Assembly: GCF_003933245.1 (NCBI RefSeq)
Contig: NZ_QUSX01000001.1
Coordinates: 930,001 to 994,000, forward strand
DNA from: Maribacter algicola
Lineage (GTDB): Bacteria; Bacteroidota; Bacteroidia; Flavobacteriales; Flavobacteriaceae
DNA length: 64,000 bases
Direction: 5' to 3'
This document shows positions 23,232 through 62,743 of the stretch, in pieces (within the stretch, counting starts at the first letter, position 1; the number at the start of each line of letters is the position of its first letter). A program made the translations under genes and the position numbers. The notes below the pieces were generated by a model. The model saw nothing but the letters and a program-made list of their open reading frames with translations. It searched no databases and was not told where the DNA came from.

Positions 23232-23246
23232 AAACTGTAACAGCTA

Positions 23247-40704: not shown

Positions 40705-41634
40705 CTAAGGCTTGCGATTCATAGGGGTATCGTCCACTTTCAAATCTCCAGTTACATATTGGAGGCCGTCCAAGTAAAACTTGAATAGCTCCGGATTTTG
40801 TAAACTTTGCGCATTGTGCGAAGGAGCAGAATAAAAAACCCGTCCCTTACCATACTTTTTTATCCAGGAAACATAATTCTTAACATCTTTTACCTTATGC
40901 TTGATTCCTTCTATCTTATCCACCTCAAAATAAAGTAAGGGTCTAAAATTATAATCAAAGTAGGCATTTTTGAAAAAATAGGGCTCATCAATATGCTTTA
41001 ATCCCTTTCCATTGAAAGCACTCACCAAGGGATGGTCCTTGTCCACTTCCTTAAGATGTATTTCCTGCTGTTTTGGATGATAATCAAAACTCCCTCCGGT
41101 CATTGTACTGAATTCCGGGGAATTGTTCTGTACCACAATAGCACCATGCATAATCACTAGTCCACCTCCTTTTTTCACATATTCCAATAAGTTGGACTCA
41201 TAATGTAGCGCTTTCTCATTGGCCTCTTCATCCGATATGGAAGAATACTTTTTTAACAAGTCATAAAACAAATTTCTTTCAGGACCTGTTGGGTTCGAAT
41301 TGTTCAATATTACAGCATCGTAGTTTTTAAGGCTTTTCTTTTCAAAATGGGTGATGTCAAAACCGATTTGAACTTCAAAGGCTCCTGTTTTACTAGCCAA
41401 AATTTTCCAGACTTCGTTGTTATGGGGTATGGTCCAATGGTCAAAGCCCGTTGCTTTTGAGAACACGAGCACCTTTCTTTTTTTTTGCCCAACGACTGTG
41501 GTTTTTGATGGGGCGTTATCATAAATACTTGCCAACCATTCATCGGTTATGGGCAATGGTTTTAACTCTTGGGCACTAACTGCGCTGTACATTAGGGTAG
41601 CGCAAATAATTAAGGAAGGCAAAACCTTTTTCAT
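40705..41634 (-). CDS. Exported ThuA-domain protein
   Basis: 309 residues with a signal peptide (MKKVLPSLIICATLMYSAVSAQ). The ThuA/glutamine-amidotransferase-like fold is visible: KVLVFSKATGFDHW at the first strand, YDAVILNNSNPTG, GGGLVIMHGAIVV, and FYSAPSHN near the end. ThuA was described with the ThuB dehydrogenase in conversion of trehalose to 3-keto forms, and exported relatives are widespread in Bacteroidota sugar loci. Its gene start overlaps the lacI stop by 4 nt (ATGA), so it is co-transcribed with the regulator. Confidence 0.85.
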   Translation of the reverse strand: MKKVLPSLIICATLMYSAVSAQELKPLPITDEWLASIYDNAPSKTTVVGQKKRKVLVFSKATGFDHWTIPHNNEVWKILASKTGAFEVQIGFDITHFEKKSLKNYDAVILNNSNPTGPERNLFYDLLKKYSSISDEEANEKALHYESNLLEYVKKGGGLVIMHGAIVVQNNSPEFSTMTGGSFDYHPKQQEIHLKEVDKDHPLVSAFNGKGLKHIDEPYFFKNAYFDYNFRPLLYFEVDKIEGIKHKVKDVKNYVSWIKKYGKGRVFYSAPSHNAQSLQNPELFKFYLDGLQYVTGDLKVDDTPMNRKP

Positions 41635-42647
41635 TTTGAAGTGGATGTTCTAATTATTAATTTATGACGAACTAAAATAGTATTCGTAGTCTGTAGGTTT
41701 ATGTTACCATTGAGATGAGCTATAATGCTTTCTCCTGCAAGCGTTCCCATCTTATATCCGGGATATTCTATTGTTGTGAGGTTTGGACTGACTATTTCGC
41801 AAACGGGATCATTATTAAAACCAACTACTTTTATGTCCTCCGGCACCCTGTAACCTTCCCTTTGCAAGGCTATAATGCAGTGTGCCGCAAAACTATCGCT
41901 GGCAACAAATAGTCCATCTATTTTTTTACCTGCCCGCTTAATGTGGCTAATGACTTCTTGAATATGTATGGGGTCAAGGCCAGTTTCTATCAATTGATCG
42001 GCATGAAGCGAAATGCCGTTCATTAAAAGGGCTTGTTTAAAACCTTTGAATCGATCCGCGTACAATGACCGTTTTAGATTGCCGCTAACGTGCAAAAGGT
42101 TTCTACACCCTTGGTCTATAAGGTGCTGCCCCGCATCAAAACCTGCCGCTAAATTATCTATTAAAATGGTGGGGCAGTTGGGAAAGTCAATTACGCGATC
42201 AAAAAACAGCAACGGAATTTTCCGAGAGGTAAAGGCCTCAAAATGTTCATAATTGTTTGACTCGTTGGCCAAGGACACCAACAAAGCATCCACACCACTG
42301 TTCAACAGTGTACTTGCGTTTATTTTTTCCTTCTCTTCAGATTCCTGGGACTGACTTATAATAAGGTTATAGCCCACCTTATTTGCGACTTGCTCGATTC
42401 CCGCAAGTACCGTAGACATAAAATATGAATTCAGTCTTGGTACAATTACCCCTATAGTATTTGATTGTTGCTTGCTCAAATTGGAAGCGAACTTGTTTGT
42501 TCTGTAACCCTTTTCATTTGCCAGGTCCAAAACCTTTTTCTTGGTTTTATCGCTTATGGACGGATGACCATTAAGACTACGGCTAACCGTTGCAGGAGAT
42601 AAACCCAGGAGTTCCGCCAAGTCATAAATGGTTATTTTTTTTGACAT
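41631..42647 (-). CDS. LacI family transcriptional regulator of the hexuronate locus
   Basis: 338 residues. Helix-turn-helix and hinge in residues 1-60: KKITIYDLAELLGLSPATVSRSLNG is the standard LacI head. The periplasmic-binding-protein-like effector domain follows (TIGVIVPRLNSYFMSTVLAGIE). Expected effector: a uronate-derived sugar acid such as KDG or KDPG, by context. It is the first gene of the minus-strand set, with thuA overlapping it, and its putative sites lie in the 261-bp divergent region before susC. Confidence 0.92.
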   Translation of the reverse strand: MSKKITIYDLAELLGLSPATVSRSLNGHPSISDKTKKKVLDLANEKGYRTNKFASNLSKQQSNTIGVIVPRLNSYFMSTVLAGIEQVANKVGYNLIISQSQESEEKEKINASTLLNSGVDALLVSLANESNNYEHFEAFTSRKIPLLFFDRVIDFPNCPTILIDNLAAGFDAGQHLIDQGCRNLLHVSGNLKRSLYADRFKGFKQALLMNGISLHADQLIETGLDPIHIQEVISHIKRAGKKIDGLFVASDSFAAHCIIALQREGYRVPEDIKVVGFNNDPVCEIVSPNLTTIEYPGYKMGTLAGESIIAHLNGNINLQTTNTILVRHKLIIRTSTSK

Positions 42648-42670
42648 AGAAAAAGTTTAGTTGGATAAAA

Positions 42671-42701
42671 TTATGCAACAAAAATAAGGTTTATTGCATA
42701 A
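42671..42701. promoter_or_regulatory. Inverted repeat TTATGCAA/TTGCATAA upstream of lacI
   Basis: Perfect inverted half-sites TTATGCAA (42671-42678) and TTGCATAA (42694-42701) with a 15-bp spacer, 24 bp upstream of the lacI start. The half-site is identical to the left half of the operator at 42801-42817, which suggests the same protein (the LacI regulator) binds both, giving autoregulation. Confidence 0.5.
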
Positions 42702-42772
42702 ATGAACTAATAAAAGGATAAAAATTAGTGTCTATAAGCGTAATATTTATAAATATACTAATACAAATATGT

Positions 42773-42817
42773 TAATTTTGCAATTATTTACGAAATATAT
42801 TATGCAATCGGTTGCTT
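42773..42817 (+). promoter_or_regulatory. susC promoter -7 box with overlapping LacI-type operator
   Basis: TAATTTTG (42773-42780) matches the Bacteroidota -7 consensus TAnnTTTG. About 20 bp downstream, TATGCAATCGGTTGCTT (42801-42817) has the LacI-family form GCAA-n-CG-n-TTGC with central CG. An operator placed just after the start point would block transcription when the repressor binds. The next start codon is susC at 42909. Confidence 0.6.
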
Positions 42818-42908
42818 TTTTCGATATTGATTTCTAGATTTGGCTCCGTTAACATTACGTTCACGTTTTAGAGCATTTAATTTAATCATCAACCTAACAA
42901 CATAGAAT

Positions 42909-45900
42909 ATGGAAAAATCAAGTCATTTGACCATTTTAAAAAGAGCGTGCCTACTGATAGTATTCTGCTATCTGACCTGCACAAACTTTTCAAATGCACA
43001 AAATGGGCCCACGATAACTGGAACCGTTGTGGACAGCCAAAACTCACCCTTGCCAGGAGCTTCGATTGTGGAAAAAGGCACATCCAACGGGGTTTCTGCT
43101 GATTTTGATGGAAACTTTTCAATCGAACTATTAAGTGCCAACGCAACCTTGGTCGTTTCCTTTATCGGGTATGACCCTAAGGAAATCAGTGTTGACGGAA
43201 GATCAAATCTTGTCATTTCCCTCATAGAAAACACTTCCGCGTTGGACGAAGTAGTTGTTGTAGGTTATGGTAGCCAAAAACGTTCCGATGTTACCGGTGC
43301 CGTTGCCAGCGCCAACCTTGAGGCATTCGAGGAAGCCCCCAATACCAATATAGCACAGAGCCTACAGGGTACCGTACCGGGTCTAAATGTGGGCCAAGTA
43401 AACACGGCAGGTGGAACCCCAGAGATTACGATAAGGGGTCAAGTATCCTTAAACGGCAGCCAAAGTGTGCTTATAGTTTTGGATGGTATCCAATACAATG
43501 GATCATTGTCTTCAATTAACCCAAATGACATAGAATCCATAGATGTGTTAAAGGATGTTAGTTCTACCGCAATTTATGGGGCGCAAGCAGCCAATGGTGT
43601 GATTTTAATAACTTCGAAAGGTGGCAAGAGAAACCAAAAACCAAAAGTTTCCATTAGCTCCTCCTATGCAACCCTACAACCGTCCCAAAATATTAGGCCG
43701 CTTAGAAGGGAGGCTTATATCGATCATCTGAACATGCAGTTATATGACTTGCGATTCCTAGCTCCGGACTATCTAACTCCAAATCCCGATTACGTAGGAT
43801 ACTTTGAACCCGGGCAAGGTATCAATGCCAATTTTGAGTTACAGTCAGATACCAATCCTGGACAGTTCAATGACAATGATTATGATTGGTGGGGAGAGGG
43901 TACCCAAACTGGATTTGTAAGGCAAAACGAAATAAGCGTGGCAGGTGCATCAGAATCTACCAGTTATTTGGTTTCCCTTGGTCTTACGGAACAAGAAGGT
44001 ATTATTAGAAATGACGATTTTTCAAGAAGAAGTTTGAGGGTCAATCTGGAAAGTAACATTACAGATGGTTGGAAAATAGGCGTACAATCCTTTGGATCGT
44101 TTGTTAAACAAGATGGTGACGAACCGTTTTTATCACAGTTGGCAGGATTTTCACCGCTGTTGGTTCCTTTTGACGATGAGGGCAAACTAATACCCAATCC
44201 CGCAGGCACTATAGAACCTAATCCTTTTTTGGGCCTAGATACGCAAGACTATGAGCGTCATGATTATTTCTTCGCCAATTTATATACAGAAGTGGACCTT
44301 CCTTTTATAAAAGGTTTGTCTTATCGTCTCAATTTTGGTAACAATTACAGAATAGATAAGTTTTATGGGTCTAGTATTTATGAAGCGGGACAAACAGGGC
44401 TTGCTAGCAAGGATGTACGGTTTTACAGGGATTATACTTTGGACAATCTGTTAAATTACAATAGGATTTTTGGAAAGCATGACGTTTCGGCCACCTTACT
44501 CTACGGAGCCATCGAGCGACAAGAGGAGACCACTGTGGCAACGGCCACCGGTTTTGACCGATTGCTGTTGGGCTACAATGATTTAGCTGTAGGAGCCATA
44601 CCCACGATAGAATCAAGTGCATATACGGAAACATTGAACTATCAAATGCTCAGGGCAAATTACAAATATGACAACAAATATATTTTAACCGGTACCATTA
44701 GACGGGATGGGTTTTCAGGCTTTGCAGCGAATGAAAAGACTGCCTACTTCCCTTCAGGTGCCCTAGGGTGGATTGTATCCAATGAATCTTTTTTAAGGGA
44801 TTCTGAATGGATAAACAACTTGAAATTCAGGGCCAGTTATGGTATTAGTGGAAACCAAACCCCAAGGTTTACCTCTCTTGCACGATTGGGAACCAGGGCC
44901 GCCTATGTTTTTGGTGACGGTTCAGGTCCTGCCTTTGGTCAAGAACTTACGTCTCTGGCCAATCCTAACCTACGATGGGAAAAAACCGCAGGTCTCAACC
45001 TAGGTTTGGACTTCTCACTTTTTACCAATAGGTTGCGAGGAAACTTGGATGTGTATCAAAACACTACGGACGATTTATTATTCTCGGTAAGGATTCCATT
45101 CCTTACAGGCTTTAGCAATATCCAAACAAACGTTGGAAAAATACAAAACACGGGGATGGAAGTTTCGCTCTCTGGCGATATAGTACGAAACGATAGTTTC
45201 ACTTGGACGGCCACCGCAAACTTCTCGACCAATAAAAATGAAATTCTTGAACTAACCGGAGAGGATGCTGATGGGGATGGTGTTGAGGATGATTTAATCC
45301 AAAGTAATCTTTTCATAGGGGAATCCATAAATGCAATATATGATTACGAAGTAGATGGTATTTACCAAGTAGGAGATGATATTCCAGAGGGTTATGCTAT
45401 TGGAAATTACAGGGTGGTAGACCAAAACGGTGACGGAGTTATTACGCAAGCGGATGACCGTAAAATAATAGGGACCAGGGATCCTTCTTATGCAGTGTCT
45501 TTGTTGAACACATTCACCTATAAGAACTTGTCCTTTAGTTTTTTCCTGAATTCAATACAAGGAAATGGAGGCAACTATATCTCACGAAATGACAATGCGC
45601 TCTATAGAAATGCCAATACTTTATATCAAAATGTACTTACCGGCATTGATTACTGGTCACCAGACAATCCAGATGGATTGAACGCCATGGCGCCAAGCAG
45701 ACCCGGAATTTCTGGAACACGCTATGAAAATAGAAGTTTCGTTCGCCTACAGGATATTAATCTTAGATATAACTTCAATAGGGATATTCTTGAAAGGATA
45801 GGTTTAACAGATTTAAGTGTATTTGTTAGTGGAAAGAACCTGTTTACATGGACAGATTGGACCGGGTGGGACCCTGAATTTCAGGATACCTCAGACCCGG

Positions 45901-45986
45901 ACAATAGAATCTTTGGTGTTGGCCTTACTACAAATGGCAGACCTGTATTAAAAGGATACTCACTAGGTATAAACTTATCATTCTAA
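42909..45986 (+). CDS. susC: SusC/RagA family TonB-linked outer-membrane receptor
   Basis: 1025 residues. Signal peptide, then a carboxypeptidase-D-like domain (ITGTVVDSQNSPLPGASIVEKGTSNG), the TonB-box region EVVVVGYGSQKRSDVTGAVAS, a plug with VLIVLDGIQYNGSLSSINPNDIESIDVLKD, and a long barrel ending in the usual hydrophobic F (GINLSF). It imports oligo- or monosaccharide derivatives across the outer membrane with SusD. First gene of the plus-strand set, behind the operator. Confidence 0.95.
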   Translation: MEKSSHLTILKRACLLIVFCYLTCTNFSNAQNGPTITGTVVDSQNSPLPGASIVEKGTSNGVSADFDGNFSIELLSANATLVVSFIGYDPKEISVDGRSNLVISLIENTSALDEVVVVGYGSQKRSDVTGAVASANLEAFEEAPNTNIAQSLQGTVPGLNVGQVNTAGGTPEITIRGQVSLNGSQSVLIVLDGIQYNGSLSSINPNDIESIDVLKDVSSTAIYGAQAANGVILITSKGGKRNQKPKVSISSSYATLQPSQNIRPLRREAYIDHLNMQLYDLRFLAPDYLTPNPDYVGYFEPGQGINANFELQSDTNPGQFNDNDYDWWGEGTQTGFVRQNEISVAGASESTSYLVSLGLTEQEGIIRNDDFSRRSLRVNLESNITDGWKIGVQSFGSFVKQDGDEPFLSQLAGFSPLLVPFDDEGKLIPNPAGTIEPNPFLGLDTQDYERHDYFFANLYTEVDLPFIKGLSYRLNFGNNYRIDKFYGSSIYEAGQTGLASKDVRFYRDYTLDNLLNYNRIFGKHDVSATLLYGAIERQEETTVATATGFDRLLLGYNDLAVGAIPTIESSAYTETLNYQMLRANYKYDNKYILTGTIRRDGFSGFAANEKTAYFPSGALGWIVSNESFLRDSEWINNLKFRASYGISGNQTPRFTSLARLGTRAAYVFGDGSGPAFGQELTSLANPNLRWEKTAGLNLGLDFSLFTNRLRGNLDVYQNTTDDLLFSVRIPFLTGFSNIQTNVGKIQNTGMEVSLSGDIVRNDSFTWTATANFSTNKNEILELTGEDADGDGVEDDLIQSNLFIGESINAIYDYEVDGIYQVGDDIPEGYAIGNYRVVDQNGDGVITQADDRKIIGTRDPSYAVSLLNTFTYKNLSFSFFLNSIQGNGGNYISRNDNALYRNANTLYQNVLTGIDYWSPDNPDGLNAMAPSRPGISGTRYENRSFVRLQDINLRYNFNRDILERIGLTDLSVFVSGKNLFTWTDWTGWDPEFQDTSDPDNRIFGVGLTTNGRPVLKGYSLGINLSF

Positions 45987-45997
45987 TTCAATAAACA

Positions 45998-47671: not shown

Positions 47672-47805
47672 AAAAGATATTTACCAAAAAGTTAGTTGTT
47701 AGTTTTATTTTTAGTCAATGGAAAGTAGATCCTACTATTTTCTGAGATTAATTGAGTTGTTAGTTTAGTTTGCAATAACTATCGTTGTCCTAATCGAATA
47801 TATTT

Positions 47806-49023: not shown

Positions 49024-49035
49024 AATTAACTACCA

Positions 49036-50415
49036 ATGCAAAGAAGAAATTTTATTAAAAAATCATCCTTGAGCGCTGCAGGGGTTGTAGCTTTTCCAAC
49101 GATTGTGCCTTCAACGGTATTTGGGAAAGATGCTCCAAGCAACAAAATCAATATTGGTCAAATAGGCTGTGGGCGTATAGCGCGCGGACATGATATTCCA
49201 GATACTATTAAGTATGAAGATGCGCGTTTTATTGCCGTTTGTGATTTGGACTCCAAACGTCTTGGAGATGCAAAAACATTGGTAGACGATTATTACAGGA
49301 AAAAAACGGGTAAATCCAAGTACATGGATACCAAGACCTATGGCGACTATAGAGAGATGCTTTTGGATAAGGATTTAGATGCCGTAGTAATTAGCACGCC
49401 AGACCATTGGCATTCCCAACCAGCCATGGAAGCTGCCATCGCAGGTAAGGACATCTATCTTCAAAAACCCACCTCTTTAACCGTAAAGGAAGGACAACAG
49501 CTGCAAAAAGCTGTGCTTGAAAACAATGTCATATTGCAAGTGGGCACACAACAAAGAGCGATGCCACAATTTAGAGTCGCAGCAGAATTGGTAAGAAATG
49601 GTAGAATAGGTAAAGTACACACGGTAAAAATTGGCTTGCCTGGAGACCCTGCAGGTCCAGAGGCACCAGAAATGCAAATACCAAGTAATCTTAATTTTGA
49701 TATGTGGTTGGGCTCCACTCCCGAAGTTCCCTACACTGAAATTGGGGTTCATCCGCAAAACGATTATAGTAGACCAGGTTGGTTAAGACATCGAAATTAT
49801 GGAGCTGGCATGATTACTGGCTGGGGACAGCATCATTATGATTCCGCCGCTTGGGGTATGAACACCGAACTTACCGGACCGGTATCGGTTGAAGCATTGG
49901 CAGAATTTCCAAAATCCGGATTATGGAACGTACATGGTGATTTCTTTGTAAAACATGAATATGAGAATGGCATTACCGTTTATACCAGTGGCGGTTATAC
50001 CAATGGAGTTCAATATATAGGAGAGGATGGTTGGATTTTTGTTTCACGGGGAGATTATACAGCTTCCGCTTCAGATCCAGTGGATAAAGAAAAGAGTTCA
50101 AAAGCATTGAATGCCTCAGACCCTAAAATACTGGAGTCCGTCATTGGTCCCAATGAGATACATCTGGAAAAAATAGATGACCAACATGGCAACTGGTTGG
50201 AGTGTATAAAAACCAGAAAACAACCTATATCTCCAATAGAAAAAGGGCATAAGGCCTGTACTATCTGTTTGATCAGTGATATTGCAATGCAATTTTCGCG
50301 CAAACTAAAATGGGATCCGATCAACGAATGGTTCATAGATGATCCAGAGGCAAACGCCATGTTGCAAAGGGCTCAACGCAAACCTTATGGAACAGATTAT
50401 GTAAAAATGGGATAG
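49036..50415 (+). CDS. Exported Gfo/Idh/MocA family oxidoreductase (Tat signal)
   Basis: 459 residues. A twin-arginine start MQRRNFIKKSSLSAAGVVAF indicates export folded, with NAD(P) bound. Rossmann motif IGQIGCGRIARGHDI, catalytic-type Lys in DIYLQKPTSLTVKEG and the GWGQHHYDSAAWGM segment are present. Members of this fold include sugar dehydrogenases and the NAD-dependent glycosidases of GH109. With DUF6807 and ThuA it could make or use a 3-keto sugar intermediate in the periplasm. Confidence 0.88.
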   Translation: MQRRNFIKKSSLSAAGVVAFPTIVPSTVFGKDAPSNKINIGQIGCGRIARGHDIPDTIKYEDARFIAVCDLDSKRLGDAKTLVDDYYRKKTGKSKYMDTKTYGDYREMLLDKDLDAVVISTPDHWHSQPAMEAAIAGKDIYLQKPTSLTVKEGQQLQKAVLENNVILQVGTQQRAMPQFRVAAELVRNGRIGKVHTVKIGLPGDPAGPEAPEMQIPSNLNFDMWLGSTPEVPYTEIGVHPQNDYSRPGWLRHRNYGAGMITGWGQHHYDSAAWGMNTELTGPVSVEALAEFPKSGLWNVHGDFFVKHEYENGITVYTSGGYTNGVQYIGEDGWIFVSRGDYTASASDPVDKEKSSKALNASDPKILESVIGPNEIHLEKIDDQHGNWLECIKTRKQPISPIEKGHKACTICLISDIAMQFSRKLKWDPINEWFIDDPEANAMLQRAQRKPYGTDYVKMG

Positions 50416-50530
50416 CATTCAAAATGGTTTCACCTAGAAGTCCCTTTTATGCTTACCTCCTATTTAATAACCTACTAGGCCCCATTATAAAGGTGGGGAA
50501 GAATTTACATTTACTTTGAAATTAAAGCAC

Positions 50531-51913
50531 ATGAAGAAATTCATACTATTGGCTACTATCCTTTTAATTTTTGGTTTTACGGTTTCATGTGATCAAAAAA
50601 AAAGGGAAGAGAAGGACACAAAAAAACAACTTGTTAAGCTAATGACCCTTGATCCGGGTCATTTTCACGCGGCTTTGGTCCAAAAAACGATGTATCCCCA
50701 AGTTGATTCGACCATTTATGTATTTGCCCCAAATGGTCCAGAAGTCAAGGATTTTCTCAGTAAGATTGAACAGTACAACACTAGAGATGAAAATCCTACC
50801 AACTGGGAGGTAAAAACCTATCTTGGAGAGGATTATCTAACAAAAATGCTTTCAGATAAACCTGGTAATGTAATGGTAGTAGCCGGAAAGAATTCCAAAA
50901 AAATAGACTATATATTGGACGCTGTAAATGCTGGGCTAAACGTTTATGCCGATAAACCTTTGGTTATAACACCAGAAGGCTATGAAAAACTGAAAGAAGC
51001 CTTTGAGGTTGCCCAAAATAAAGGGTTGTTCATTTACGATATCATGACAGAACGCTTTGAATCAACCACCATGATGCAAAAGCAACTTTCACTTTCGCCC
51101 GAAATATTTGGGGAATTGGTGGAAGGAACACTGGAAGACCCTGCCATAAGCAAAGAAAGCGTACATCACTTTTTCAAATATGTTTCCGGAAATCCCTTGG
51201 TGCGACCACCTTGGTTCTTCGACGTATCAGAAGAAGGCGAGGGAATCGTGGATGTCACGACACATTTGGTAGATTTGATACAATGGGAGGCTTTTCCAGA
51301 ACAAATTATCGATACGGCCCAGATACGTATGATATCGGCCCGCAGGTGGCCCACCTTGGTATCGCAGGAAGAATTTACAGCGGTTACCGGATATTCTGTA
51401 TTTCCTGATTATCTGGAAAAGGATGTGGTAAACGATACCTTACAAGTATATTGCAACGGTGAAATGACCTATAAAATCAACGATATCCATGCCAAGGTTT
51501 CCGTCGTATGGAATTATAGGGCCCCAGAAGGTACCGGAGACACCCATTACAGCATTATGCGGGGCACCAAAAGCGATTTGATCATCAAACAAGGGGAAAC
51601 AGAGGGGTACAGGCCCGTTTTGTACATACGGACTCATTCTGGACCAGAAATGGAGGGAAACTTAATCAAGGCCATGGACCAAGAGGTAGCATCCCTATTT
51701 CCGGGCACTACCCTTACCGCCATGGAAGAGGGCCTATGGAAAGTGAACATTCCAGAACAGTTTAAGGTTGGCCACGAGGCCCACTTTGCACAGGTAACGG
51801 AGAACTATCTTAAATACTTGGAGTCTGGGAAAATGCCAACTTGGGAGGTGCCCAATATGATCACTAAATATTATACTACCATAGAAGCATACAAAATGGC
51901 AAAGGCAAATTAA
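50531..51913 (+). CDS. Second exported oxidoreductase-like lipoprotein (Oxidoreduct_C type)
   Basis: 460 residues from ATG 50531; an upstream TTG is less likely. Signal MKKFILLATILLIFGFTVSC (lipobox VSC). It starts with LMTLDPGHFHAALVQ, has the EKP-like motif VYADKPLVITPEGYEKLK, and a long C-terminal part (SMRGTKSDLIIKQGETEGY-like) of the family called putative oxidoreductase C-terminal domain. The classical GxGxxG is not clear, so activity with NAD(P) is uncertain. Its stop overlaps the start of the next gene by one base (TAATG), so it is coupled to uxuB. Confidence 0.82.
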   Translation: MKKFILLATILLIFGFTVSCDQKKREEKDTKKQLVKLMTLDPGHFHAALVQKTMYPQVDSTIYVFAPNGPEVKDFLSKIEQYNTRDENPTNWEVKTYLGEDYLTKMLSDKPGNVMVVAGKNSKKIDYILDAVNAGLNVYADKPLVITPEGYEKLKEAFEVAQNKGLFIYDIMTERFESTTMMQKQLSLSPEIFGELVEGTLEDPAISKESVHHFFKYVSGNPLVRPPWFFDVSEEGEGIVDVTTHLVDLIQWEAFPEQIIDTAQIRMISARRWPTLVSQEEFTAVTGYSVFPDYLEKDVVNDTLQVYCNGEMTYKINDIHAKVSVVWNYRAPEGTGDTHYSIMRGTKSDLIIKQGETEGYRPVLYIRTHSGPEMEGNLIKAMDQEVASLFPGTTLTAMEEGLWKVNIPEQFKVGHEAHFAQVTENYLKYLESGKMPTWEVPNMITKYYTTIEAYKMAKAN

Positions 51914-52731
51914 TGAACGAACAATTCTCTTTATTGAATAGAACGTATGCCCTCTCTGGTGGAACCGGCATACTTGGAGGGTCAATTGCTGAGTACTTGG
52001 TAAATCAAGGGGCCAAAGTCATCCTACTAGGAAGAGCTCTGGAGAAATTGGAATCAAAACAAAAAGTATTGAACCAAATAGCTGCAAACAGTACAACTAT
52101 CTTCAAGGTGGATGTACTAAGTGAAACCGAGCTGTTTAGATTAAAGGAGATTATTTCTACTTCTTATGATACATTGGACGGTTTAATTAACTTGGCCGGA
52201 GGAAACATCCCTGGCGCTACCCTGCGGCCCGATCAGACCATTCATGATATTGCAATGTCAGATACTCAAAAAGTAGTGGACATTAATCTTTTTGGAACCG
52301 TACTGCCTTCTATTGTTTTGAGTGGTATTATGGTAAAACAAGGTAAAGGTTCCATAATAAATATATCATCTATGGCTGCCAAACAAAGTATTTCAAGGGT
52401 ATTGGGCTATTCAATGGCCAAGGCAGGTGTTGATATTTTCACAAAATGGATGGCGCAAGAACTTGCTACAAAACACGGGGATAAAATAAGGGTCAACGCC
52501 ATCGCGCCGGGATTTTTTATAGGTAACCAAAATAGGAAATTGCTGATCAATGAAGATGGGTCCCTTACGGAAAGAGGACAGCTCATTATCAACAACACTC
52601 CTATGAAACGTTTTGGCGATGTAATGGAATTAAATGGCATGGTCCATTACCTTTTAAGCGATGCATCCTCATTCGTAACAGGGAGCATTTTTGATTTGGA
52701 CGGCGGTTTTAACTCATTTTCTGGAGTATAA
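51913..52731 (+). CDS. uxuB: Fructuronate reductase, SDR type (D-mannonate oxidoreductase)
   Basis: 272 residues. SDR motifs SGGTGILGGSIAEYL (cofactor), NLAGGNIPGATLRPD, NISSMAA with Ser, and YSMAKAGVD (Tyr-x3-Lys). The C-terminal APGFFIGNQNRKLLINEDGSLTERGQ and TPMKRFGD are distinctive of the Bacillus YjmF-like SDR fructuronate reductase, so I call it UxuB and not KduD. Reaction: D-fructuronate plus NAD(P)H to D-mannonate. It is translationally coupled to the gene before it and lies 144 bp before uxuA. It supplies the only glucuronate-arm reductase in the window. Confidence 0.85.
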   Translation: MNEQFSLLNRTYALSGGTGILGGSIAEYLVNQGAKVILLGRALEKLESKQKVLNQIAANSTTIFKVDVLSETELFRLKEIISTSYDTLDGLINLAGGNIPGATLRPDQTIHDIAMSDTQKVVDINLFGTVLPSIVLSGIMVKQGKGSIINISSMAAKQSISRVLGYSMAKAGVDIFTKWMAQELATKHGDKIRVNAIAPGFFIGNQNRKLLINEDGSLTERGQLIINNTPMKRFGDVMELNGMVHYLLSDASSFVTGSIFDLDGGFNSFSGV

Positions 52732-52875
52732 AAGATTTGCCGATGAAAGTTCTTGACCAACGACCCTTACAAAAGCATTTCTATTATGGTATCTTGCTTT
52801 TGAAATGACCATAAAACTGTATATTGTATGCTTCGTTTGAAAACACGGGATAACTTATCTTTTTTTAATTAAAGA

Positions 52876-54072
52876 ATGAAAAATCTAAAGAAAACATTTA
52901 GGTGGTTTGGACCCGATTTTGGAGTATCGTTAGCGGATATAAGGCAATTGGGCGTACAAGGAATAGTTGCGGCCTGCCAGGAAGTACCGTTGGGAGAGAT
53001 ATGGCCCAAAGACACCATTGGGGCACTTAAAGCTCAAATAGAAAACCATGGTATGGAATGGTCCGTTGTTGAAAGTGTGAATGTGCATACGGCCATCAAG
53101 TACGGACTCAAGGAAAGGGACCTGTATATATCCAATTATATAGAAACCTTGAAAAATTTGGCGTCCCATGGTATCTATAACGTTTGCTACAATTTTATGC
53201 AGCTCATCGACTGGACCCGCACCGATTTAGATTATATATTGCCAACAGGAGCATCGGCCCTTCGATATAGTCCAATTTCGGCAGCGGCATTTGACCTTTT
53301 TATTTTGGAACGCGAAGGAGCCCAAGAGTCGTACTCCAAAGAGGAATATTTAGAGGCCAAGGCCTATTATGAAACCTTGTCCGATTCCGGAAAAAAGAAC
53401 TTAAAAGCAGCCATTCTGGCTGGTATGCCAGGATCCAGAAAAGAAATAGATTTAACCGAATTTAAAAAGAACCACACCACCGTACTTGGTATAAAAAAGG
53501 AATCACTTCAGGAAAACCTGTCCTATTTTCTAAACGCGGTGATTTCAGAGGCTGAAAAGTTGGGCGTACGCATGGCCATACATCCAGACGACCCTCCATT
53601 TTCCGTTTTTGGGGTCCCCAGAATCGTTTCCAATTATGACGATATTAAGTTTTTGTTGGAATGTTGTCCTTCCCCCAGCAACGGGCTAACTTTTTGTTCA
53701 GGTTCTTTGGGTGCATCGGAAAACAATGACTTGGTGAAGATTATCGAGGATTTTGGGGATAAGATTCATTTTATACATCTTCGCAATGTATCCCGAAACC
53801 AAGATGGCAGTTTTTACGAGGCCGATCATCTAAGTGGTTCCGTACCTATGGAAAAGGTCATGAAGGCCATCGTACAACAGCAACAAAAACGGCACACGGA
53901 ACAAAATGGCGTGGTGGACATACCCATGAGACCAGATCATGGACATGTTTTGCTGGATGACAAAAAACGGCAACAGGAGTTTTACTCAGGTTACTCCCTC
54001 ATTGGTAGGGCCATGGGACTTGCCCAACTTTCCGGGTTGGAAATGGGTGTACGGGAAAGCTTGGTCGTCTAA
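52876..54072 (+). CDS. uxuA: Mannonate dehydratase
   Basis: 398 residues of the TIM-barrel UxuA family: NVCYNFMQLIDWTRTDL, LRYSPISAAAFDLFILEREGA, MAIHPDDPPFSVFG, GLTFCSGSLGA, HFIHLRNVSR and RPDHGH give the metal and substrate positions. Reaction: D-mannonate to KDG plus water, Fe2+/Mn2+ dependent. Length equals E. coli UxuA. Completes the glucuronate arm. Confidence 0.95.
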   Translation: MKNLKKTFRWFGPDFGVSLADIRQLGVQGIVAACQEVPLGEIWPKDTIGALKAQIENHGMEWSVVESVNVHTAIKYGLKERDLYISNYIETLKNLASHGIYNVCYNFMQLIDWTRTDLDYILPTGASALRYSPISAAAFDLFILEREGAQESYSKEEYLEAKAYYETLSDSGKKNLKAAILAGMPGSRKEIDLTEFKKNHTTVLGIKKESLQENLSYFLNAVISEAEKLGVRMAIHPDDPPFSVFGVPRIVSNYDDIKFLLECCPSPSNGLTFCSGSLGASENNDLVKIIEDFGDKIHFIHLRNVSRNQDGSFYEADHLSGSVPMEKVMKAIVQQQQKRHTEQNGVVDIPMRPDHGHVLLDDKKRQQEFYSGYSLIGRAMGLAQLSGLEMGVRESLVV

Positions 54073-54083
54073 AAAACTTAATA

Positions 54084-55088
54084 TTGATTCGTAAAATTCA
54101 CAATATCGCCTTGAAAGGAATACGCACAAAAATTTTGTGGGTATGTACTTTGCTTTTGTTGCAATCCTGTGCTCTGGAAAATAACACCAAGGTGCTTTAT
54201 TTTGCCCATTCCCTTCCTGTTACACATCCCGTACACAGGGCCATTATGGACATGAAAGAATCCTTGGCGCAAAAATCAGGTGGGCATCTACAAATAAAGG
54301 TCTTTCCAGATGGACAACTTGGAACAGAGCGTGAAGTTTTGGAGCTCTTACAAATTGGGAGTATTTCCATGACAAAGGTAAGCGCAGCTTCCCTTTCCAA
54401 CTTCGCCCCGGACTATCAGTTAACCAGTATTCCCTATTTATTTAGAGACAGCGAACATCTGTTCAAGGTACTGGAAGGTGAAATTGGGAAGGAACTATTA
54501 ATGAGCAGTTCGGAATTTTTACTACGTGGCCTATGTTTCTATGATGCCGGGTCCCGAAGCTTTTATGCAAAGAACCAACAAATAGAAAGCCCAGCGGATT
54601 TAGAGGGGATGAAAATCAGGACCATGAACGACCAAATGTCCGTTGATATGGTAAACACCCTTGGCGGTTCCGCAACCCCCATGGCCTATGGCGAACTCTA
54701 TACCGCCCTACAGCAAAACGTGGTTGATGGAGCGGAAAACAACATTCCATCCTTTGTTACCAGCAACCATTACGAGGTCTGTAAATTCTATTCGTTCGAT
54801 GAGCATACCATGGTTCCGGATGTGGTAGTAATAGGTACGCGTTTTTGGGACACCTTGGATAACAAGGAAAAAGTTTGGCTACAGGAAGCAGCCAATGAAA
54901 GTGTGGAAAATCAAAAAAAATATTGGAAGGAAACAGTAGCAGAAAATATGAAGGTCCTAAAAGAGGCCAATGTTGAATTCCTGTATCCGGACAAATCAGA
55001 ATTTTCAAAAATTGCCGCCCCGATTATGGAGAAAATGATGGAAGACGAAAAGATGAAAGCTCTAATCGAAAAAATACGGTCAGAATAA
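54084..55088 (+). CDS. dctP: TRAP transporter substrate-binding protein (DctP family), lipoprotein
   Basis: 334 residues. No ATG precedes the signal sequence; TTG at 54084 (or TTG 54111) is the start. Signal: KGIRTKILWVCTLLLLQSC, lipobox LQSC. Mature part: HPVHRAIMDMKESLAQKSGGHL, VFPDGQLGTEREVLELLQIG, RGLCFYDAGSRSFYAKN, MKIRTMNDQMSVDMVNTLGG (conserved Arg contacting the carboxylate) and QQNVVDGAENN. It binds an organic acid, by context glucuronate or galacturonate, in the periplasm and is lipid-anchored, which is less usual for DctP. It overlaps dctQ by 1 base. Confidence 0.92.
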   Translation: MIRKIHNIALKGIRTKILWVCTLLLLQSCALENNTKVLYFAHSLPVTHPVHRAIMDMKESLAQKSGGHLQIKVFPDGQLGTEREVLELLQIGSISMTKVSAASLSNFAPDYQLTSIPYLFRDSEHLFKVLEGEIGKELLMSSSEFLLRGLCFYDAGSRSFYAKNQQIESPADLEGMKIRTMNDQMSVDMVNTLGGSATPMAYGELYTALQQNVVDGAENNIPSFVTSNHYEVCKFYSFDEHTMVPDVVVIGTRFWDTLDNKEKVWLQEAANESVENQKKYWKETVAENMKVLKEANVEFLYPDKSEFSKIAAPIMEKMMEDEKMKALIEKIRSE

Positions 55089-55561
55089 TGCATAAATTAT
55101 ATACTCTGCTCAACAAAATAATCGAGGCCCTTTTGGTGATCATTTTCGGTTTACTCGTCATAGACGTAGTTTGGCAAGTGGTATCCCGTTATGTCGTAGG
55201 CCAATCAAGTTCCTTTACGGAGGAATTCGCACGCTTTTCATTGATTTGGCTCACAGTACTTGGAGCTGCCTATATCAACGGGCAGCAAGAAGGTCACCTT
55301 TCCATGGATTTTTTACTATTAAAATTGCCGGAGACCAAACGAAAAAGTAGACAAAAAGTAATCCAAATAGCAATGGCCATTTTTGCATTGGTGGTTATGG
55401 TCATTGGCGGTGGCAATTTGGTCTATACCACGCTTCGATTGGGCCAAACCTCCTCTGCCCTGCATCTACCACTGGGTTACGTATATAGTATTGTGCCCTT
55501 ATGTGGTCTTATTATTATGTTCTTTTCATGGTACAACGTTAAACAACTAAATAGTAAGTAA
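55088..55561 (+). CDS. dctQ: TRAP transporter small permease (DctQ)
   Basis: 157 residues with four hydrophobic helices and the DctQ signature EEFARFSLIWLTVLGAAY followed by GHLSMDF. Inner-membrane subunit bridging DctM and the binding protein. TAATG overlap with dctP; the dctM start follows directly. Confidence 0.92.
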   Translation: MHKLYTLLNKIIEALLVIIFGLLVIDVVWQVVSRYVVGQSSSFTEEFARFSLIWLTVLGAAYINGQQEGHLSMDFLLLKLPETKRKSRQKVIQIAMAIFALVVMVIGGGNLVYTTLRLGQTSSALHLPLGYVYSIVPLCGLIIMFFSWYNVKQLNSK

Positions 55562-56872
55562 ATGAGTATAGAGCTTATAAGTGTTTTGGTCCTTTTTTTA
55601 AGTTTTGCCATTTTATTGCTCTACGGGGTACCCGTAGCCTACTCCATAGGAATTTCCACTACTCTGGTACTTGTTATCAATATGGCCTTTAACCCTTCTG
55701 TAACCACGGTGGCCCAGCGTATGACCACCGGTATCGATAATTTCGCCCTGCTCGCTATCCCATTTTTCATTCTGGCTGGTGAACTCATGAACCGTGGAGG
55801 GGTGGCCAATAGGCTTATTGCTTTGGCCAAATCCCTAATAGGCAGTCTTCCTGGAGGACTGGCATATGTAAACATCATTTCCGCCATGTTGTTCGGGGCC
55901 ATTTCAGGGTCGGCCATAGCTGCGGCCTCGGCCATTGGTAGTACCCTAACGGACAAAATGGAAAAAGAAGGATATCCCAGGCAATTTAGTGCTGCCGTAA
56001 ACATTAGTTCATCCACTACGGGCCTATTGATACCTCCCAGTAACGTACTCATCATTTTTGCCTTGGCAAGTGGGGGAACGGCCTCCGTGGCCGCCCTTTT
56101 TGTGGCAGGTTATATTCCTGGTATTTTGGTGGGCCTTGCACTTATGGTCATGGTCTTTTTTTATGCTAAAAAGAAGAAGTTACCCAAGGCCGATAGGGTT
56201 GGCTTTAAACAACTTTTTATTGATTTTAAGGAAGCCTTTCTCAGCCTTACGCTTTTGGTTATTGTGGTTGGAGGAATCGTTGCCGGTATTTTTACAGCGA
56301 CTGAGGCTGCGGCAATTGCCGTTGTTTATGCCGCTTTTTTAGGTTTCCTCAACAAGGAACTGCATATTAGGGATTTTAGGGGCATTTTGTTGAAAAGTGC
56401 CAAAACTACGGCCATCGTCATGTTCTTGATTGCCACTTCCATGGCCATGTCCTGGGTATTTTCCTTTGAGGGCATACCCCAATTGCTTACAGGAATCATG
56501 GTCGATTCCGTAAGTAACCCCATATTGATTTTCTTGCTCATCAACTTAATACTACTTATTGTAGGAACTTTTATGGATATGACCCCAGCGGTTCTCATTT
56601 TTACCCCTATTTTCCTTCCCGTTGCCATAGCACTAGGGATGCATCCCGTTCAGTTCGGTATGGTAATCGTATTGAATTTGTGTATTGGCGTTTGTACCCC
56701 TCCGGTGGGTACTTTACTTTTTGTGGGCAGTGGCGTGGCCCAAGTGCCTGTTGGCAAGGTTATTAAACCCCTATTACCCCTTTTATTGGCCATGGTTTTT
56801 GTACTATTTTTAATTACGTATTTTTCAGGAATATCATTGTGGTTACCCCAATTTTTTGGGTTGATAGATTAG
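55562..56872 (+). CDS. dctM: TRAP transporter large permease (DctM)
   Basis: 436 residues, about 12 helices: AIPFFILAGELMNRGG, AMLFGAISGSAIAAASAIGS, PSNVLIIFALASGGTASVAALFVAGYIPG, FTATEAAAIAVVYA and PVGTLLFVGSGVA are the DctM signatures. Na+-driven import of a uronate, with DctP and DctQ. It follows dctQ with no gap. Confidence 0.94.
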   Translation: MSIELISVLVLFLSFAILLLYGVPVAYSIGISTTLVLVINMAFNPSVTTVAQRMTTGIDNFALLAIPFFILAGELMNRGGVANRLIALAKSLIGSLPGGLAYVNIISAMLFGAISGSAIAAASAIGSTLTDKMEKEGYPRQFSAAVNISSSTTGLLIPPSNVLIIFALASGGTASVAALFVAGYIPGILVGLALMVMVFFYAKKKKLPKADRVGFKQLFIDFKEAFLSLTLLVIVVGGIVAGIFTATEAAAIAVVYAAFLGFLNKELHIRDFRGILLKSAKTTAIVMFLIATSMAMSWVFSFEGIPQLLTGIMVDSVSNPILIFLLINLILLIVGTFMDMTPAVLIFTPIFLPVAIALGMHPVQFGMVIVLNLCIGVCTPPVGTLLFVGSGVAQVPVGKVIKPLLPLLLAMVFVLFLITYFSGISLWLPQFFGLID

Positions 56873-56885
56873 AAATGATACTACA

Positions 56886-59153
56886 ATGATTTCCCCAAAC
56901 AATTTTTTATTCATGAAGTTTGTATTTGTTCCCATAACTATTGCCTTTGTTTTTCTTTGCTCTTGTAAACCTTCTTATGAAGAAACCGAAATACCTTTGG
57001 ATACCTATACCTTGGAAGAAGGTTTTACTTTAAAGGTCTTGGCATCGGAACCACTCCTCAAGGCTCCCGTGGCCATGGATTTTGACGATAAGGGCAGAAT
57101 GTGGGTAGCACAGATGCCCGGTTACATGAACGATATGCAGGGCTCCGCCGAAAACGATCCCGTGGGAAGTATTCGTATTATCGAAGATTTAGATCATGAC
57201 GGTATTGCAGACCATGCAAAAATTTTCTTGGACAGCCTGGTCATGCCTAGGGCATTGGCCCATGTCTATGGCGGTTTGCTCTATGCGGAACCTCCTTATT
57301 TATGGTTCGTGGAAATCAAAGACGACAAACCCGCGAATCCAGTCTTGGTGGACTCTCTTTATGCCGTAGAAGGTAACCCGGAGCATCAGCCCAATGGACT
57401 ACTTCTTAATGTGGACAATTGGATCTATAATGCCAAGTCCAATTTTAGATATCGGAGAAAAAACGGTGTATGGGAAAAGGAACCAACAACCTTTAGGGGG
57501 CAGTGGGGAATTTCAAAGGATAATTTTGGACGACTCTATTATAATGACAATTCAAGAATTTTACTAGGTGACTACGTTCTTCCCAATTCTTTGATAAGCA
57601 ATAAATATTCTGTGCCCAGTTCCAGCGTAGACAATCTTATTACCAGTGACCAACGCGTATATCCCCTTCATGCAACTTCAGTCAATAGAGGATATGCCAA
57701 GGGCGTATTGAATCAGGATAGCATATTGATCAATGCCACAGCAGCCTGCAGTCCACTTGTGTATAGAGGGGGTACTTTCAGTGATTCGTACGACCAAAAT
57801 GTTTTTGTTTGCTTGCCCGAAGGTAACTTGATAAAAAGAACAATCTTGAATTTCCAGGGCGATTCCATCACGGCAAGGCACGCGTGGAAGGATAAGGAGT
57901 TTTTGGCATCGACGGATGAAGGTTTTCGGCCAGTGTCCATCAAAAACGCCCCTGATGGCAGCATATATATTGTGGATATGCATAGGGGAATGATAGGCCA
58001 TCATGCCTACCTCAGTCCTTATTTGAAGAAAAAAACCAGCAAAACTAGGTTGGATACTATAACGGATTTTGGTAGAATCCTAAGGGTAAAGCGAGAAGGT
58101 ACCCCTAATCTTCCGCTTCCAGATTTTAAAACAACGAATGGCAAGGAACTTATTTCTTTGCTTTCCAGCGATATTGGATGGATTCGAGATAGGGCACAAC
58201 ACCATCTTATCCATAGGAAAACAGATGAACTCATTAGTGAAGTTAAGAACTACCTATTAAACAGTGCACATAGTTGGGGACCATTACATGCTTTGTATGT
58301 TCTTGAAGATTGGAACGAGCTTTCTTTTGAATTTCTAACCGAGGTAATAAAGAAAGGGCATCAAAATAGTATGGCCCATGCCTTGGTTCTAAGCAAGATG
58401 TATGTATCTGAAGAAAATAAGGATTTAGCTAAAGATATCTTGGATTACGTACTTGAAAAGGACGACATTACCTTGGATATTTATTTAAGCAGTATTCTAG
58501 GCGATTGGATCAAGTTGGATTCCACCAAATTTACAGAATCACTTTTGACCGTTTTAAATAGACATCCGGAAAATCCAATCGTTCTGGAAGCATTGGTCAG
58601 TGGTTTGGATGGTATAGAAAGTGGGTTTATTGATAATCTGGACCTTGGGGAAAAAGAATTCTTTGCCTTTAAAGAAAGTATCCAAAACGCTATAGCCAAT
58701 GAGAATAACAACAAATTAAACCCCATATTTTCAGTAAAATCCTTAAATGAGGACAATAGAACAAGCGGTGCAAAGCTATTTTCCCAAATCTGTGCTTCTT
58801 GCCATGGAATAAATGGTCAGGGAATAGAAGGCTTGGCCCCGCCCTTGATCAATTCTGAACACGTTGATAGAACGGAGCGCTTGGCACTTATTATGCTTCA
58901 TGGACTTGAGGGGCCCATTCATGTGAACGGGCAGGAATACGATTTAAATTTGGCCATGCCCGGACTCATAAGAAATGAGGAAATAAGCGATAAGGACATT
59001 GCAGATTTAATAGCCTATGTTACCAACGCATTTTCACCAACTCCCAGGACACTTAAGGAGAAGCGTATTAATGAGCTGAGAAATATAAAATCCTCCTCTG
59101 GTACGGAGTTCACTGAGGACGAATTGTTACAATTTGATGTGGAGAAAAAGTAG
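56886..59153 (+). CDS. PVC-type haem-binding lipoprotein: beta-propeller plus C-terminal cytochrome c domain
   Basis: 755 residues (ATG 56913 is an alternative start and gives a tighter signal, MKFVFVPITIAFVFLCSC). Residues ~30-400 form a membrane-bound-dehydrogenase-type propeller (FTLKVLASEPLLKAPVAMDFDDKGRMWVA, and the DMHRGMIGHHAYLSPYL stretch). A helical region follows. The C-terminus is a cytochrome c with haem motif C636-A-S-C639-H640 and a likely axial Met in LAMPGLIRNEE. Electrons released by oxidising a sugar would pass to the haem. It is the last gene of the plus-strand set, 13 bp after dctM, which links it to uronate or glycoside oxidation. Confidence 0.85.
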   Translation: MISPNNFLFMKFVFVPITIAFVFLCSCKPSYEETEIPLDTYTLEEGFTLKVLASEPLLKAPVAMDFDDKGRMWVAQMPGYMNDMQGSAENDPVGSIRIIEDLDHDGIADHAKIFLDSLVMPRALAHVYGGLLYAEPPYLWFVEIKDDKPANPVLVDSLYAVEGNPEHQPNGLLLNVDNWIYNAKSNFRYRRKNGVWEKEPTTFRGQWGISKDNFGRLYYNDNSRILLGDYVLPNSLISNKYSVPSSSVDNLITSDQRVYPLHATSVNRGYAKGVLNQDSILINATAACSPLVYRGGTFSDSYDQNVFVCLPEGNLIKRTILNFQGDSITARHAWKDKEFLASTDEGFRPVSIKNAPDGSIYIVDMHRGMIGHHAYLSPYLKKKTSKTRLDTITDFGRILRVKREGTPNLPLPDFKTTNGKELISLLSSDIGWIRDRAQHHLIHRKTDELISEVKNYLLNSAHSWGPLHALYVLEDWNELSFEFLTEVIKKGHQNSMAHALVLSKMYVSEENKDLAKDILDYVLEKDDITLDIYLSSILGDWIKLDSTKFTESLLTVLNRHPENPIVLEALVSGLDGIESGFIDNLDLGEKEFFAFKESIQNAIANENNNKLNPIFSVKSLNEDNRTSGAKLFSQICASCHGINGQGIEGLAPPLINSEHVDRTERLALIMLHGLEGPIHVNGQEYDLNLAMPGLIRNEEISDKDIADLIAYVTNAFSPTPRTLKEKRINELRNIKSSSGTEFTEDELLQFDVEKK

Positions 59154-61795: not shown

Positions 61796-61797
61796 TC

Positions 61798-62691: not shown

Positions 62692-62709
62692 TCGATATAT
62701 CTATATACA

Positions 62710-62740: not shown

Positions 62741-62743
62741 AAA

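What the first reader, a model, noticed from the sequence alone, without database searches (positions are those of the whole stretch)
40705..59153. Hexuronate locus with no visible hydrolase or lyase but a set of exported redox-type proteins
The window encodes SusC/SusD, both uronate arms to KDG, KdgK/KdgA and a TRAP importer, yet I see no glycoside hydrolase or polysaccharide lyase. In their place are an exported ThuA-like protein, a DUF6807 lipoprotein, a Tat-exported Gfo/Idh protein, a second oxidoreductase-like lipoprotein and a haem-binding propeller/cytochrome lipoprotein. From established knowledge, Gfo/Idh members include NAD-dependent glycosidases and ThuA/ThuB act with 3-keto sugars. 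My inference is that glycosidic bonds of a uronate glycoside are cut by oxidation, elimination and re-addition in the periplasm, with electrons passed to the haem protein.
Basis: partly seen in the sequence, partly recalled or inferred. Interest (0 to 1): 0.7.

Follow-up and report, generated by a model that had tools for sequence, protein, structure and literature searches.

The report
Exported redox module in uronate locus
A bacterium related to marine Maribacter keeps its genes for eating the sugar acid glucuronate next to a conserved set of exported proteins that probably prepare the sugar outside the cytoplasm by oxidation-type chemistry, and one of them (DUF6807) is an uncharacterised protein with a sugar-enzyme fold.

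Summary
Window 34107-59153 carries a complete hexuronate pathway, SusC/SusD and a TRAP importer; none of 50 window proteins scanned with Pfam is a GH or PL. The exported set is a real module: in 53 relatives with full flanks, DUF6807 travels with the Tat Gfo/Idh in 53, the PF16490 lipoprotein in 52 and ThuA in 45; sdr, uxuA or uxaC lie nearby in 32. A LacI-type operator sits at one conserved place. DUF6807 is predicted to be a supersandwich like mutarotases and domains of PL26 and other sugar enzymes, so a hidden sugar enzyme is plausible. The haem protein looks like a PQQ sugar dehydrogenase with cytochrome c. It is coupled but not obligatory: six of 26 genomes searched carry DUF6807 fused to it in one ORF, eight of 26 have no such protein. 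A published relative was reported to split lactose beside a DUF6807 gene. Periplasmic 3-keto-glycoside chemistry is already known, and PDB names a glucuronide-3-dehydrogenase. New is the DUF6807 variant tied to uronate catabolism and to quinohaem-type oxidation. Substrate, carbon oxidised and bond cleavage remain inferred.

The parts
34107..35723 (-). uxaA, altronate dehydratase
   Evidence: PF20629/PF04295
35728..37176 (-). uxaB-type, mannitol dehydrogenase family, altronate oxidoreductase by context
   Evidence: PF01232/PF08125
37350..38033 (-). kdgA, KDPG aldolase
   Evidence: NCBIfam PRK07114, 374 bits over cut-off 275
38141..39181 (-). kdgK by context, PfkB sugar kinase
   Evidence: PF00294
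39206..40603 (-). uxaC, glucuronate/galacturonate isomerase
   Evidence: PF02614 E 1.4e-207
40705..41634 (-). exported ThuA-like protein, overlaps lacI by 4 bases
   Evidence: PF06283 E 7.8e-31; minus-strand upstream in 48 of 59 loci with 9 kb upstream
41631..42647 (-). LacI-family regulator
   Evidence: PF00356/PF13377
42804..42815 (.). LacI-type operator GCAATCGGTTGC in the divergent promoter region
   Evidence: only match in window, 0.01 expected; GCAANCGNTTGC within 600 bases upstream of lacI in 33 of 42 loci; the other two exact genome matches lie inside ORFs
42909..45986 (+). SusC-like TonB-dependent transporter
   Evidence: PF13715/PF07715
45998..47671 (+). SusD-like protein
   Evidence: PF07980/PF14322
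47806..49023 (+). DUF6807 lipoprotein, predicted supersandwich fold
   Evidence: PF14100; model pLDDT 85.7; fold matches
49036..50415 (+). Tat-type exported Gfo/Idh oxidoreductase
   Evidence: PF01408/PF19051; RR motif invariant in 19 aligned
50516..51913 (+). PF16490 Gfo/Idh-like lipoprotein (likely start near 50531)
   Evidence: PF16490 E 1.8e-130; PDB 4oo3 E 6.9e-165
51913..52731 (+). SDR, D-mannonate oxidoreductase
   Evidence: NCBIfam PRK08277 302 bits over cut-off 281
52876..54072 (+). uxuA, mannonate dehydratase, the only PF03786 match in the genome
   Evidence: TIGR00695 over cut-off; single match in G000
54084..56872 (+). TRAP transporter dctP, dctQ, dctM
   Evidence: PF03480, PF04290, PF06808
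56886..59153 (+). DUF7133 propeller with helical repeats and cytochrome c, lipoprotein
   Evidence: PF23500, PF00034; TIGR02604 over cut-off; AA12/sGDH fold matches on a weak model

Best explanation
This is one LacI-controlled hexuronate locus made of two divergent transcription units: lacI-thuA-uxaC-kdgK-kdgA-uxaB-uxaA, and susCD-DUF6807-gfo-PF16490-sdr-uxuA-TRAP-haem protein. A conserved exported module (DUF6807 plus a Tat-type Gfo/Idh, usually with the PF16490 lipoprotein and ThuA, often with the haem propeller) works in the periplasm on a glucuronate-containing compound brought in by SusC/SusD. Most likely the sugar is oxidised first, by the Gfo/Idh carried out with bound NAD or by the quinohaem-type propeller, probably at a ring hydroxyl such as C3. 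DUF6807 then does the non-redox step on the oxidised sugar (elimination, hydration or hydrolysis). The Gfo/Idh can reduce the product again, or electrons leave through the cytochrome c. The freed uronate enters by the TRAP porter and goes through UxaC, mannonate oxidoreductase and UxuA to KDG. Shown: gene content, operator motif, conservation, export signals, predicted folds, domain fusion. Inferred: substrate, carbon oxidised, bond cleavage, role of DUF6807, cofactors and direction of redox.
For: 53 loci with full flanks, hits anywhere in the locus: Tat Gfo/Idh 53, PF16490 52, thuA 45, lacI 38, sdr 32, susC 31, uxuA 30, haem protein 27, TRAP 24, uxaC 19 (genes far from DUF6807 can be cut off by the 10 kb flanks). 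DUF6807-gfo-sdr-uxuA is contiguous also in L069 and L070, records titled Cyclobacteriaceae and Flammeovirgaceae. The operator is conserved at one place. Six of 26 genomes hold one ORF of 1269-1303 aa with PF14100 followed by PF23500, with CxxCH near the C-terminus, two of them beside a Gfo/Idh gene. The Gfo/Idh keeps GxGxxA and a Lys at the usual catalytic place in the 19 aligned; nearest NCBIfam model is BT_2158 glycoside 3-dehydrogenase, nearest PDB chains 8tdf and 8tdh. DUF6807 has a sugar-enzyme fold with invariant DHxHH, Glu and Arg residues. PF06439 (3-keto-disaccharide hydrolase) was found beside the module in L042, with same-cluster genes in L030 and L043; G000 has a GMC/TIM-barrel/PF06439/Gfo-Idh cluster.
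Against: The Gfo/Idh scores 132 bits against a cut-off of 750 for BT_2158 and matches 8tdi only over residues 87-195. No PF06439 gene lies in the window, and PF01261 showed up only as a weak sub-cut-off match inside UxuA. 21 of 53 full-flank loci have no sdr, uxuA or uxaC nearby. Genome-level co-occurrence with UxuA is weak: 4 of 4 against 24 of 144 (p 0.001), without the window's own genome 3 of 3 (p 0.006), but inside its own family 4 of 4 against 9 of 17 (p 0.12). Divergent DUF6807 copies (L088, L092, L093) stand without the module. L077 has the module behind GH genes, and one fusion (L098) is beside a GH127 gene. Supersandwich domains are often non-catalytic in large GHs (recalled). No activity is known for DUF6807 in the held library. 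PF16490 is unexplained.
Confidence: 0.45

Rival explanations
1. The module acts on a uronate or aldonate already set free (anomer or epimer change, oxidation-reduction, perhaps removal of an O-substituent such as 4-O-methyl), and does not cut glycosidic bonds; ordinary hydrolases elsewhere do that.
Against: The window itself shows no GH. SusC in 31 of 53 full-flank loci suggests a larger substrate. PF06439 neighbours point to glycosides.
Confidence: 0.27
2. DUF6807 is itself a hidden polysaccharide lyase or glycoside hydrolase of a new family and the oxidoreductases are accessory.
Against: Identity 8 to 12%. PL26 also uses a helical domain, absent here (recalled). No PDB sequence match with single sequence or profile. 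In all 53 full-flank loci a Gfo/Idh is present, though divergent copies stand alone.
Confidence: 0.14
3. The haem propeller protein is the bond-cleaving enzyme.
For: Lac161_ORF7 (TIGR02604 plus HEAT plus cytochrome c), the same architecture, was reported to split lactose and lies in a putative operon with a PF14100 protein (passages of PMC5342196). Fusion with DUF6807.
Against: No PF23500 at all in 8 of 26 module genomes searched; propeller fold matches are PQQ sugar dehydrogenases (weak model). The published assay used E. coli BL21(DE3)pLysS induced with IPTG, where LacZ carry-over is possible (my inference).
Confidence: 0.07
4. A plain hexuronate locus next to unrelated exported genes.
For: 21 of 53 full-flank loci keep the module without uronate genes nearby; the UxuA association is not significant inside the family.
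Against: Contiguity in different families and the shared operator.
Confidence: 0.06

Closest known systems
Periplasmic 3-keto-glycoside pathway of Bacteroides (BT2157, BT2158)
   Same: Periplasmic glycoside 3-dehydrogenase and a non-redox partner (PMC11300592, PMC9007349 passages); NCBIfam places BT_2158 nearest to the window's Gfo/Idh
   Different: Far below the BT_2158 cut-off; DUF6807 in place of DUF1080; joined to uronate catabolism and TRAP
Glucuronide-3-dehydrogenase P2B11 (PDB 8tdi) and the alternative glycan breakdown pathway (Nasseri 2024, seen only as a reference in PMC12291463)
   Same: Gfo/Idh superfamily, glucuronide substrate by name
   Different: Short weak match (E 1.3e-7, residues 87-195)
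Lac161 cosmid operon (Verrucomicrobia, PMC5342196 passages)
   Same: Haem propeller of the same architecture and a PF14100 protein in one putative operon; sugar cleavage reported
   Different: Lactose, no uronate genes mentioned in the passages; sequences not compared here
Ashwell hexuronate pathway (UxaC, UxaB, UxaA, UxuA, KdgK, KdgA)
   Same: All steps present in window
   Different: SDR-type mannonate oxidoreductase; joined to an exported module
PL26 lyase, mutarotase and related supersandwich domains
   Same: Predicted fold of DUF6807
   Different: 8 to 12% identity; catalytic residues not mapped
AA12 / soluble PQQ sugar dehydrogenases
   Same: Predicted propeller fold of 56886-59153, plus an electron-carrier domain
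   Different: Low-confidence model; PQQ binding untested
ThuAB 3-keto-disaccharide operons (PMC4765114 passages)
   Same: ThuA family plus an oxidoreductase
   Different: This ThuA carries an export signal; no ThuB orthologue test made

Membership tests
BT_2158 glycoside 3-dehydrogenase (NF058561) | Score over curated cut-off 750 bits | tested here: not met
   132.2 bits, residues 2-277 only
BT_2158 glycoside 3-dehydrogenase (NF058561) | Exported Gfo/Idh with nucleotide motif | tested here: met
   RR motif and GxGxxA in the 19 aligned
BT_2158 glycoside 3-dehydrogenase (NF058561) | DUF1080 hydrolase partner at the locus | tested here: not met
   None among 50 window proteins; none of 18 genome places falls in the window
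BT_2158 glycoside 3-dehydrogenase (NF058561) | Oxidation of glycosides at C3 | not testable with these tools
   needs assay
Glucuronide-3-dehydrogenase P2B11 | Close full-length sequence kinship | tested here: not met
   8tdi matched at E 1.3e-7 over residues 87-195 only
Ashwell hexuronate pathway | UxaC, UxaB, UxaA, mannonate oxidoreductase, UxuA, KdgK, KdgA | tested here: met
   families; UxaB and KdgK named by family plus context
DUF6807 (PF14100) | Score over Pfam gathering cut-off | tested here: met
   219.8 against 27 bits
PL26 / GH174 / mutarotase fold group | Supersandwich fold | tested here: met
PL26 / GH174 / mutarotase fold group | Family catalytic residues | not tested
AA12 / PQQ sugar dehydrogenase | Propeller of the sGDH type | tested here: inconclusive
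AA12 / PQQ sugar dehydrogenase | PQQ and calcium binding | not testable with these tools
   needs protein
PVC-type haem-binding CxxCH protein (TIGR02604) | Score over cut-off and CxxCH | tested here: met
   168.3 against 122.2 bits; CxxCH invariant in the 15 aligned

The most novel reading that the evidence does not exclude
DUF6807 is a new family of periplasmic sugar enzyme (eliminase, hydratase or hydrolase of oxidised uronosides, or the enzyme that frees substituted glucuronate) that works hand in hand with a sugar oxidase, either a pre-loaded Tat-exported Gfo/Idh or a quinohaem propeller to which it is even fused in nature, giving many Bacteroidota a hydrolase-free entry of glucuronate glycosides into the hexuronate pathway.
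Probability: 0.33. Interest if true: 0.77.

Novelty: new variant of a known kind. Interest (0 to 1): 0.53.

Why it matters
It gives an uncharacterised family (DUF6807, called PmoA or methane oxygenase in two of the papers seen) a predicted carbohydrate-enzyme fold, fixed partners, natural fusions with a haem dehydrogenase-like protein, a regulator site and a metabolic destination, so its function becomes directly testable. If it proves to cleave glucuronosides, uronate turnover in these Bacteroidota would be undercounted by searches for classical hydrolases and lyases.

Tried and rejected
The check showed that 17 of those 27 hits lie at the very edge of the fetched stretch, so the count is cut short. 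Of the 26 loci without it, 5 have PF23500 on the same contig 17 to 22 kb from the module (G148, G150, G154, G160, G181; 62% identical to the window's protein in the two opened), 8 have none in the genome and 3 only weak short matches (some of these are incomplete genomes). The rejection is withdrawn; haem is treated as common and coupled, not obligatory. A PF07995 propeller cluster occurs in 10 loci, none with the haem protein in view; an NHL-type cluster occurs in 7, one of which (L021) also has the haem protein.

Trans regulon search for a hidden GH or PL under the same operator: the other two exact matches in the genome lie inside ORFs, and the reversed control pattern also gave two. Degenerate operators were not sought.

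GH88 in the genome: one match, below cut-off. Other GH and PL families were not searched genome-wide, so a hydrolase elsewhere is not excluded.

Mapping invariant DUF6807 residues on the fold failed for want of coordinates. ThuA gave only a weak PDB match. One search used a wrong Pfam number and tells nothing. Literature on 4-O-methylglucuronate (listing) and searches (listings) gave nothing decisive. That no function of DUF6807 or DUF7133 is in print rests in the held library only, apart from the Lac161_ORF7 report.

Rows dropped: the tool kept 80 of 92 relatives; 75 of 80 had a complete DUF6807 frame, 65 remained after thinning, and 52 of these plus the window went into A1. A2 used the 14 thinned from 16 long haem ORFs, A3 18 of 20 and A4 17 of 39 thinned sequences, each plus the window. 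One search was given 33 of the 80 loci, searches were given 26. Searches scanned 20 of 59 groups of large unlabelled ORFs. Cluster counts (PF07995, NHL, DUF1501, PF01208, PF06439, sulfatase, tandem DUF6807) rest on one or two members scanned with Pfam and blastp clustering for the rest.
Full report
What is there. Two divergent units leave a 261-base region: lacI-thuA-uxaC-kdgK-kdgA-uxaB-uxaA on the minus strand and susC-susD-DUF6807-gfo-PF16490-sdr-uxuA-dctPQM-DUF7133cyt on the plus strand. Gaps within the units run from minus 4 to 173 bases. Five proteins carry export signals, read directly: ThuA, DUF6807, Gfo/Idh, PF16490 protein and haem protein. Pfam scans of 50 window proteins gave no glycoside hydrolase or polysaccharide lyase.

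Who carries it. The scan of named genomes gave 92 relatives of DUF6807, of which 80 loci were kept: mainly Flavobacteriaceae (Maribacter, Zobellia, Arenibacter), with records titled Cyclobacteriaceae, Flammeovirgaceae, Prolixibacteraceae and unplaced Bacteroidota. The nearest is Maribacter sp. 4G9 with the same gene order. DUF6807 is not common in the order: 4 of 148 genomes.

The module. In the 53 loci with at least 9 kb on both sides the counts, from tblastn hits at E 1e-15 anywhere in the locus, are: Gfo/Idh 53, PF16490 52, thuA 45, lacI 38, sdr 32, susC 31, uxuA 30, haem protein 27, TRAP 24, uxaC 19; any of sdr, uxuA or uxaC 32. Immediately downstream of DUF6807 the Gfo/Idh is within 3 kb in 72 of 74 loci with room. 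In distant loci L069 and L070 the order is DUF6807-gfo-sdr-uxuA without PF16490 next to it. Thus DUF6807 plus Gfo/Idh is the core, and mannonate oxidoreductase plus UxuA a common metabolic partner.

Uronate link and its limits. UxuA occurs in 28 of 148 genomes of the order, and all 4 DUF6807 genomes are among them (one-sided Fisher p 0.001). Leaving out the window's own genome gives 3 of 3 against 24 of 144, p 0.006; inside the own family it is 4 of 4 against 9 of 17, p 0.12. One of the four (G095) has only a divergent DUF6807 copy without the module. So the local contiguity is the stronger evidence. Of 33 genomes chosen from the 80 loci, 32 have UxuA. The window's UxuA is the only one in its genome. 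21 of 53 full-flank loci have no uronate gene of the three in view.

Regulation. GCAAYCGRTTGC, a LacI-type palindrome, occurs once in the window, between the divergent units (0.01 expected). GCAANCGNTTGC lies within 600 bases upstream of lacI in 33 of 42 loci with a minus-strand lacI; L039 and L050, where thuA stands between, have it in front of the plus-strand genes, and L057 has it in front of DUF6807; three further sites (L006, L016, L025) lie elsewhere. In the own genome the other two sites lie inside ORFs. So one local regulator very probably controls both units; its ligand is unknown.

Fusion with the haem propeller. Searching the 26 module genomes whose haem protein was not in view, 6 (G148, G150, G154, G160, G176, G185) hold one ORF of 1269 to 1303 aa with PF14100 at about residues 60-330 and PF23500 at about 320-730, a HEAT match in 5 and a cytochrome c match in 5 of 6, and CxxCH near the C-terminus in all 6. 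These DUF6807 parts are of the divergent kind: 23 to 26% identical to the window's in 5, no blastp match at 1e-6 in L101. Two fusions stand beside a Gfo/Idh gene and L098 beside a GH127 gene. Together with the Lac161 operon this is good evidence that DUF6807 and the haem propeller act on the same sugar.

The oxidoreductases. The Gfo/Idh keeps the twin arginines, GxGxxA and a QKP motif where EKP is usual (the EKP rule is recalled) in the 19 aligned. Its nearest curated family is BT_2158 at 132 bits against 750. In PDB it is nearest 8tdf and 8tdh, and more weakly 8tdi, named glucuronide-3-dehydrogenase. The PF16490 lipoprotein resembles 4oo3 and has an invariant DKP motif but PGHFHA in place of the glycine motif, so NAD binding is doubtful and a non-redox role is possible.

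Setting in the genome. The same genome has 18 places matching PF06439 (3-keto-disaccharide hydrolase), none in the window, and one stretch (L089) with two PF06439 genes, two PF01261 TIM barrels, a GMC oxidoreductase and a Gfo/Idh. In L042 a PF06439 gene, a cupredoxin-type protein and the haem protein stand beside thuA; L030 and L043 have the same clusters. In L077 the module follows GH9, GH43, GH95 and GH67N genes on one strand; the distance to DUF6807 is 16 or 142 bases by the start chosen. This favours a role after or beside hydrolysis in that organism.

Judgement. The module is well supported, its uronate link fairly. Redox-assisted handling of a glucuronate compound is the best reading, at 0.45; cleavage of the glycosidic bond by it is plausible and unproven. 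As a kind of chemistry it is known (BT2157/BT2158 in PMC9007349 and PMC11300592 passages; [quoted passage not shown] Nasseri 2024 seen only as a reference in PMC12291463). What is new is the DUF6807-centred variant.

Noticed in passing
G000:C1:207726-208520 (L088): A second, divergent DUF6807 gene in the same genome without the module around it.
   Followed up: partly
L098, L099, L100, L101, L102, L103: Natural fusions of DUF6807, DUF7133 propeller and a C-terminal CxxCH in one ORF of about 1300 aa; in L098-L101 a second DUF7133-cytochrome gene of about 836 aa is next to it.
   Followed up: partly
L089 (G000:C1:1052000-1070000): Cluster of two DUF1080, two PF01261, GMC oxidoreductase and Gfo/Idh genes, like the described 3-keto-glycoside sets.
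   Followed up: partly
L105 (G181:C48:132000-149000): A second lacI-thuA-susC-susD set in a Zobellia genome, its haem protein 62% identical to the window's.
   Followed up: partly
L007, L008, L009, L013, L014, L021, L026, L044, L050, L060: DUF1501-type gene near the module in 10 loci, with planctomycete-type PSCyt1/PSCyt2/PSD1 proteins found in L008 and L060.
   Followed up: no
L066, L071, L072, L073, L074, L076, L080: A PF01208-type (uroporphyrinogen decarboxylase or methyltransferase) gene close to DUF6807 in 7 loci, perhaps a demethylation link.
   Followed up: no
L052-L054, L056, L058-L063: Ten loci of marine MAG or single-cell type carry a PF07995-type propeller gene and no haem propeller in view; a sulfatase cluster covers L005, L052, L054, L058, L059.
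   Followed up: partly
window 17257-20632: Deoxyhypusine synthase-like, arginase-family and ornithine/arginine decarboxylase genes in a row.
   Followed up: no
window 59288-63268: ECF sigma factor, FecR and TonB-dependent receptor trio directly after the locus, opposite strand.
   Followed up: no
window 22181-24119: SDR and SMP-30/gluconolactonase genes, possibly another sugar oxidation unit.
   Followed up: no
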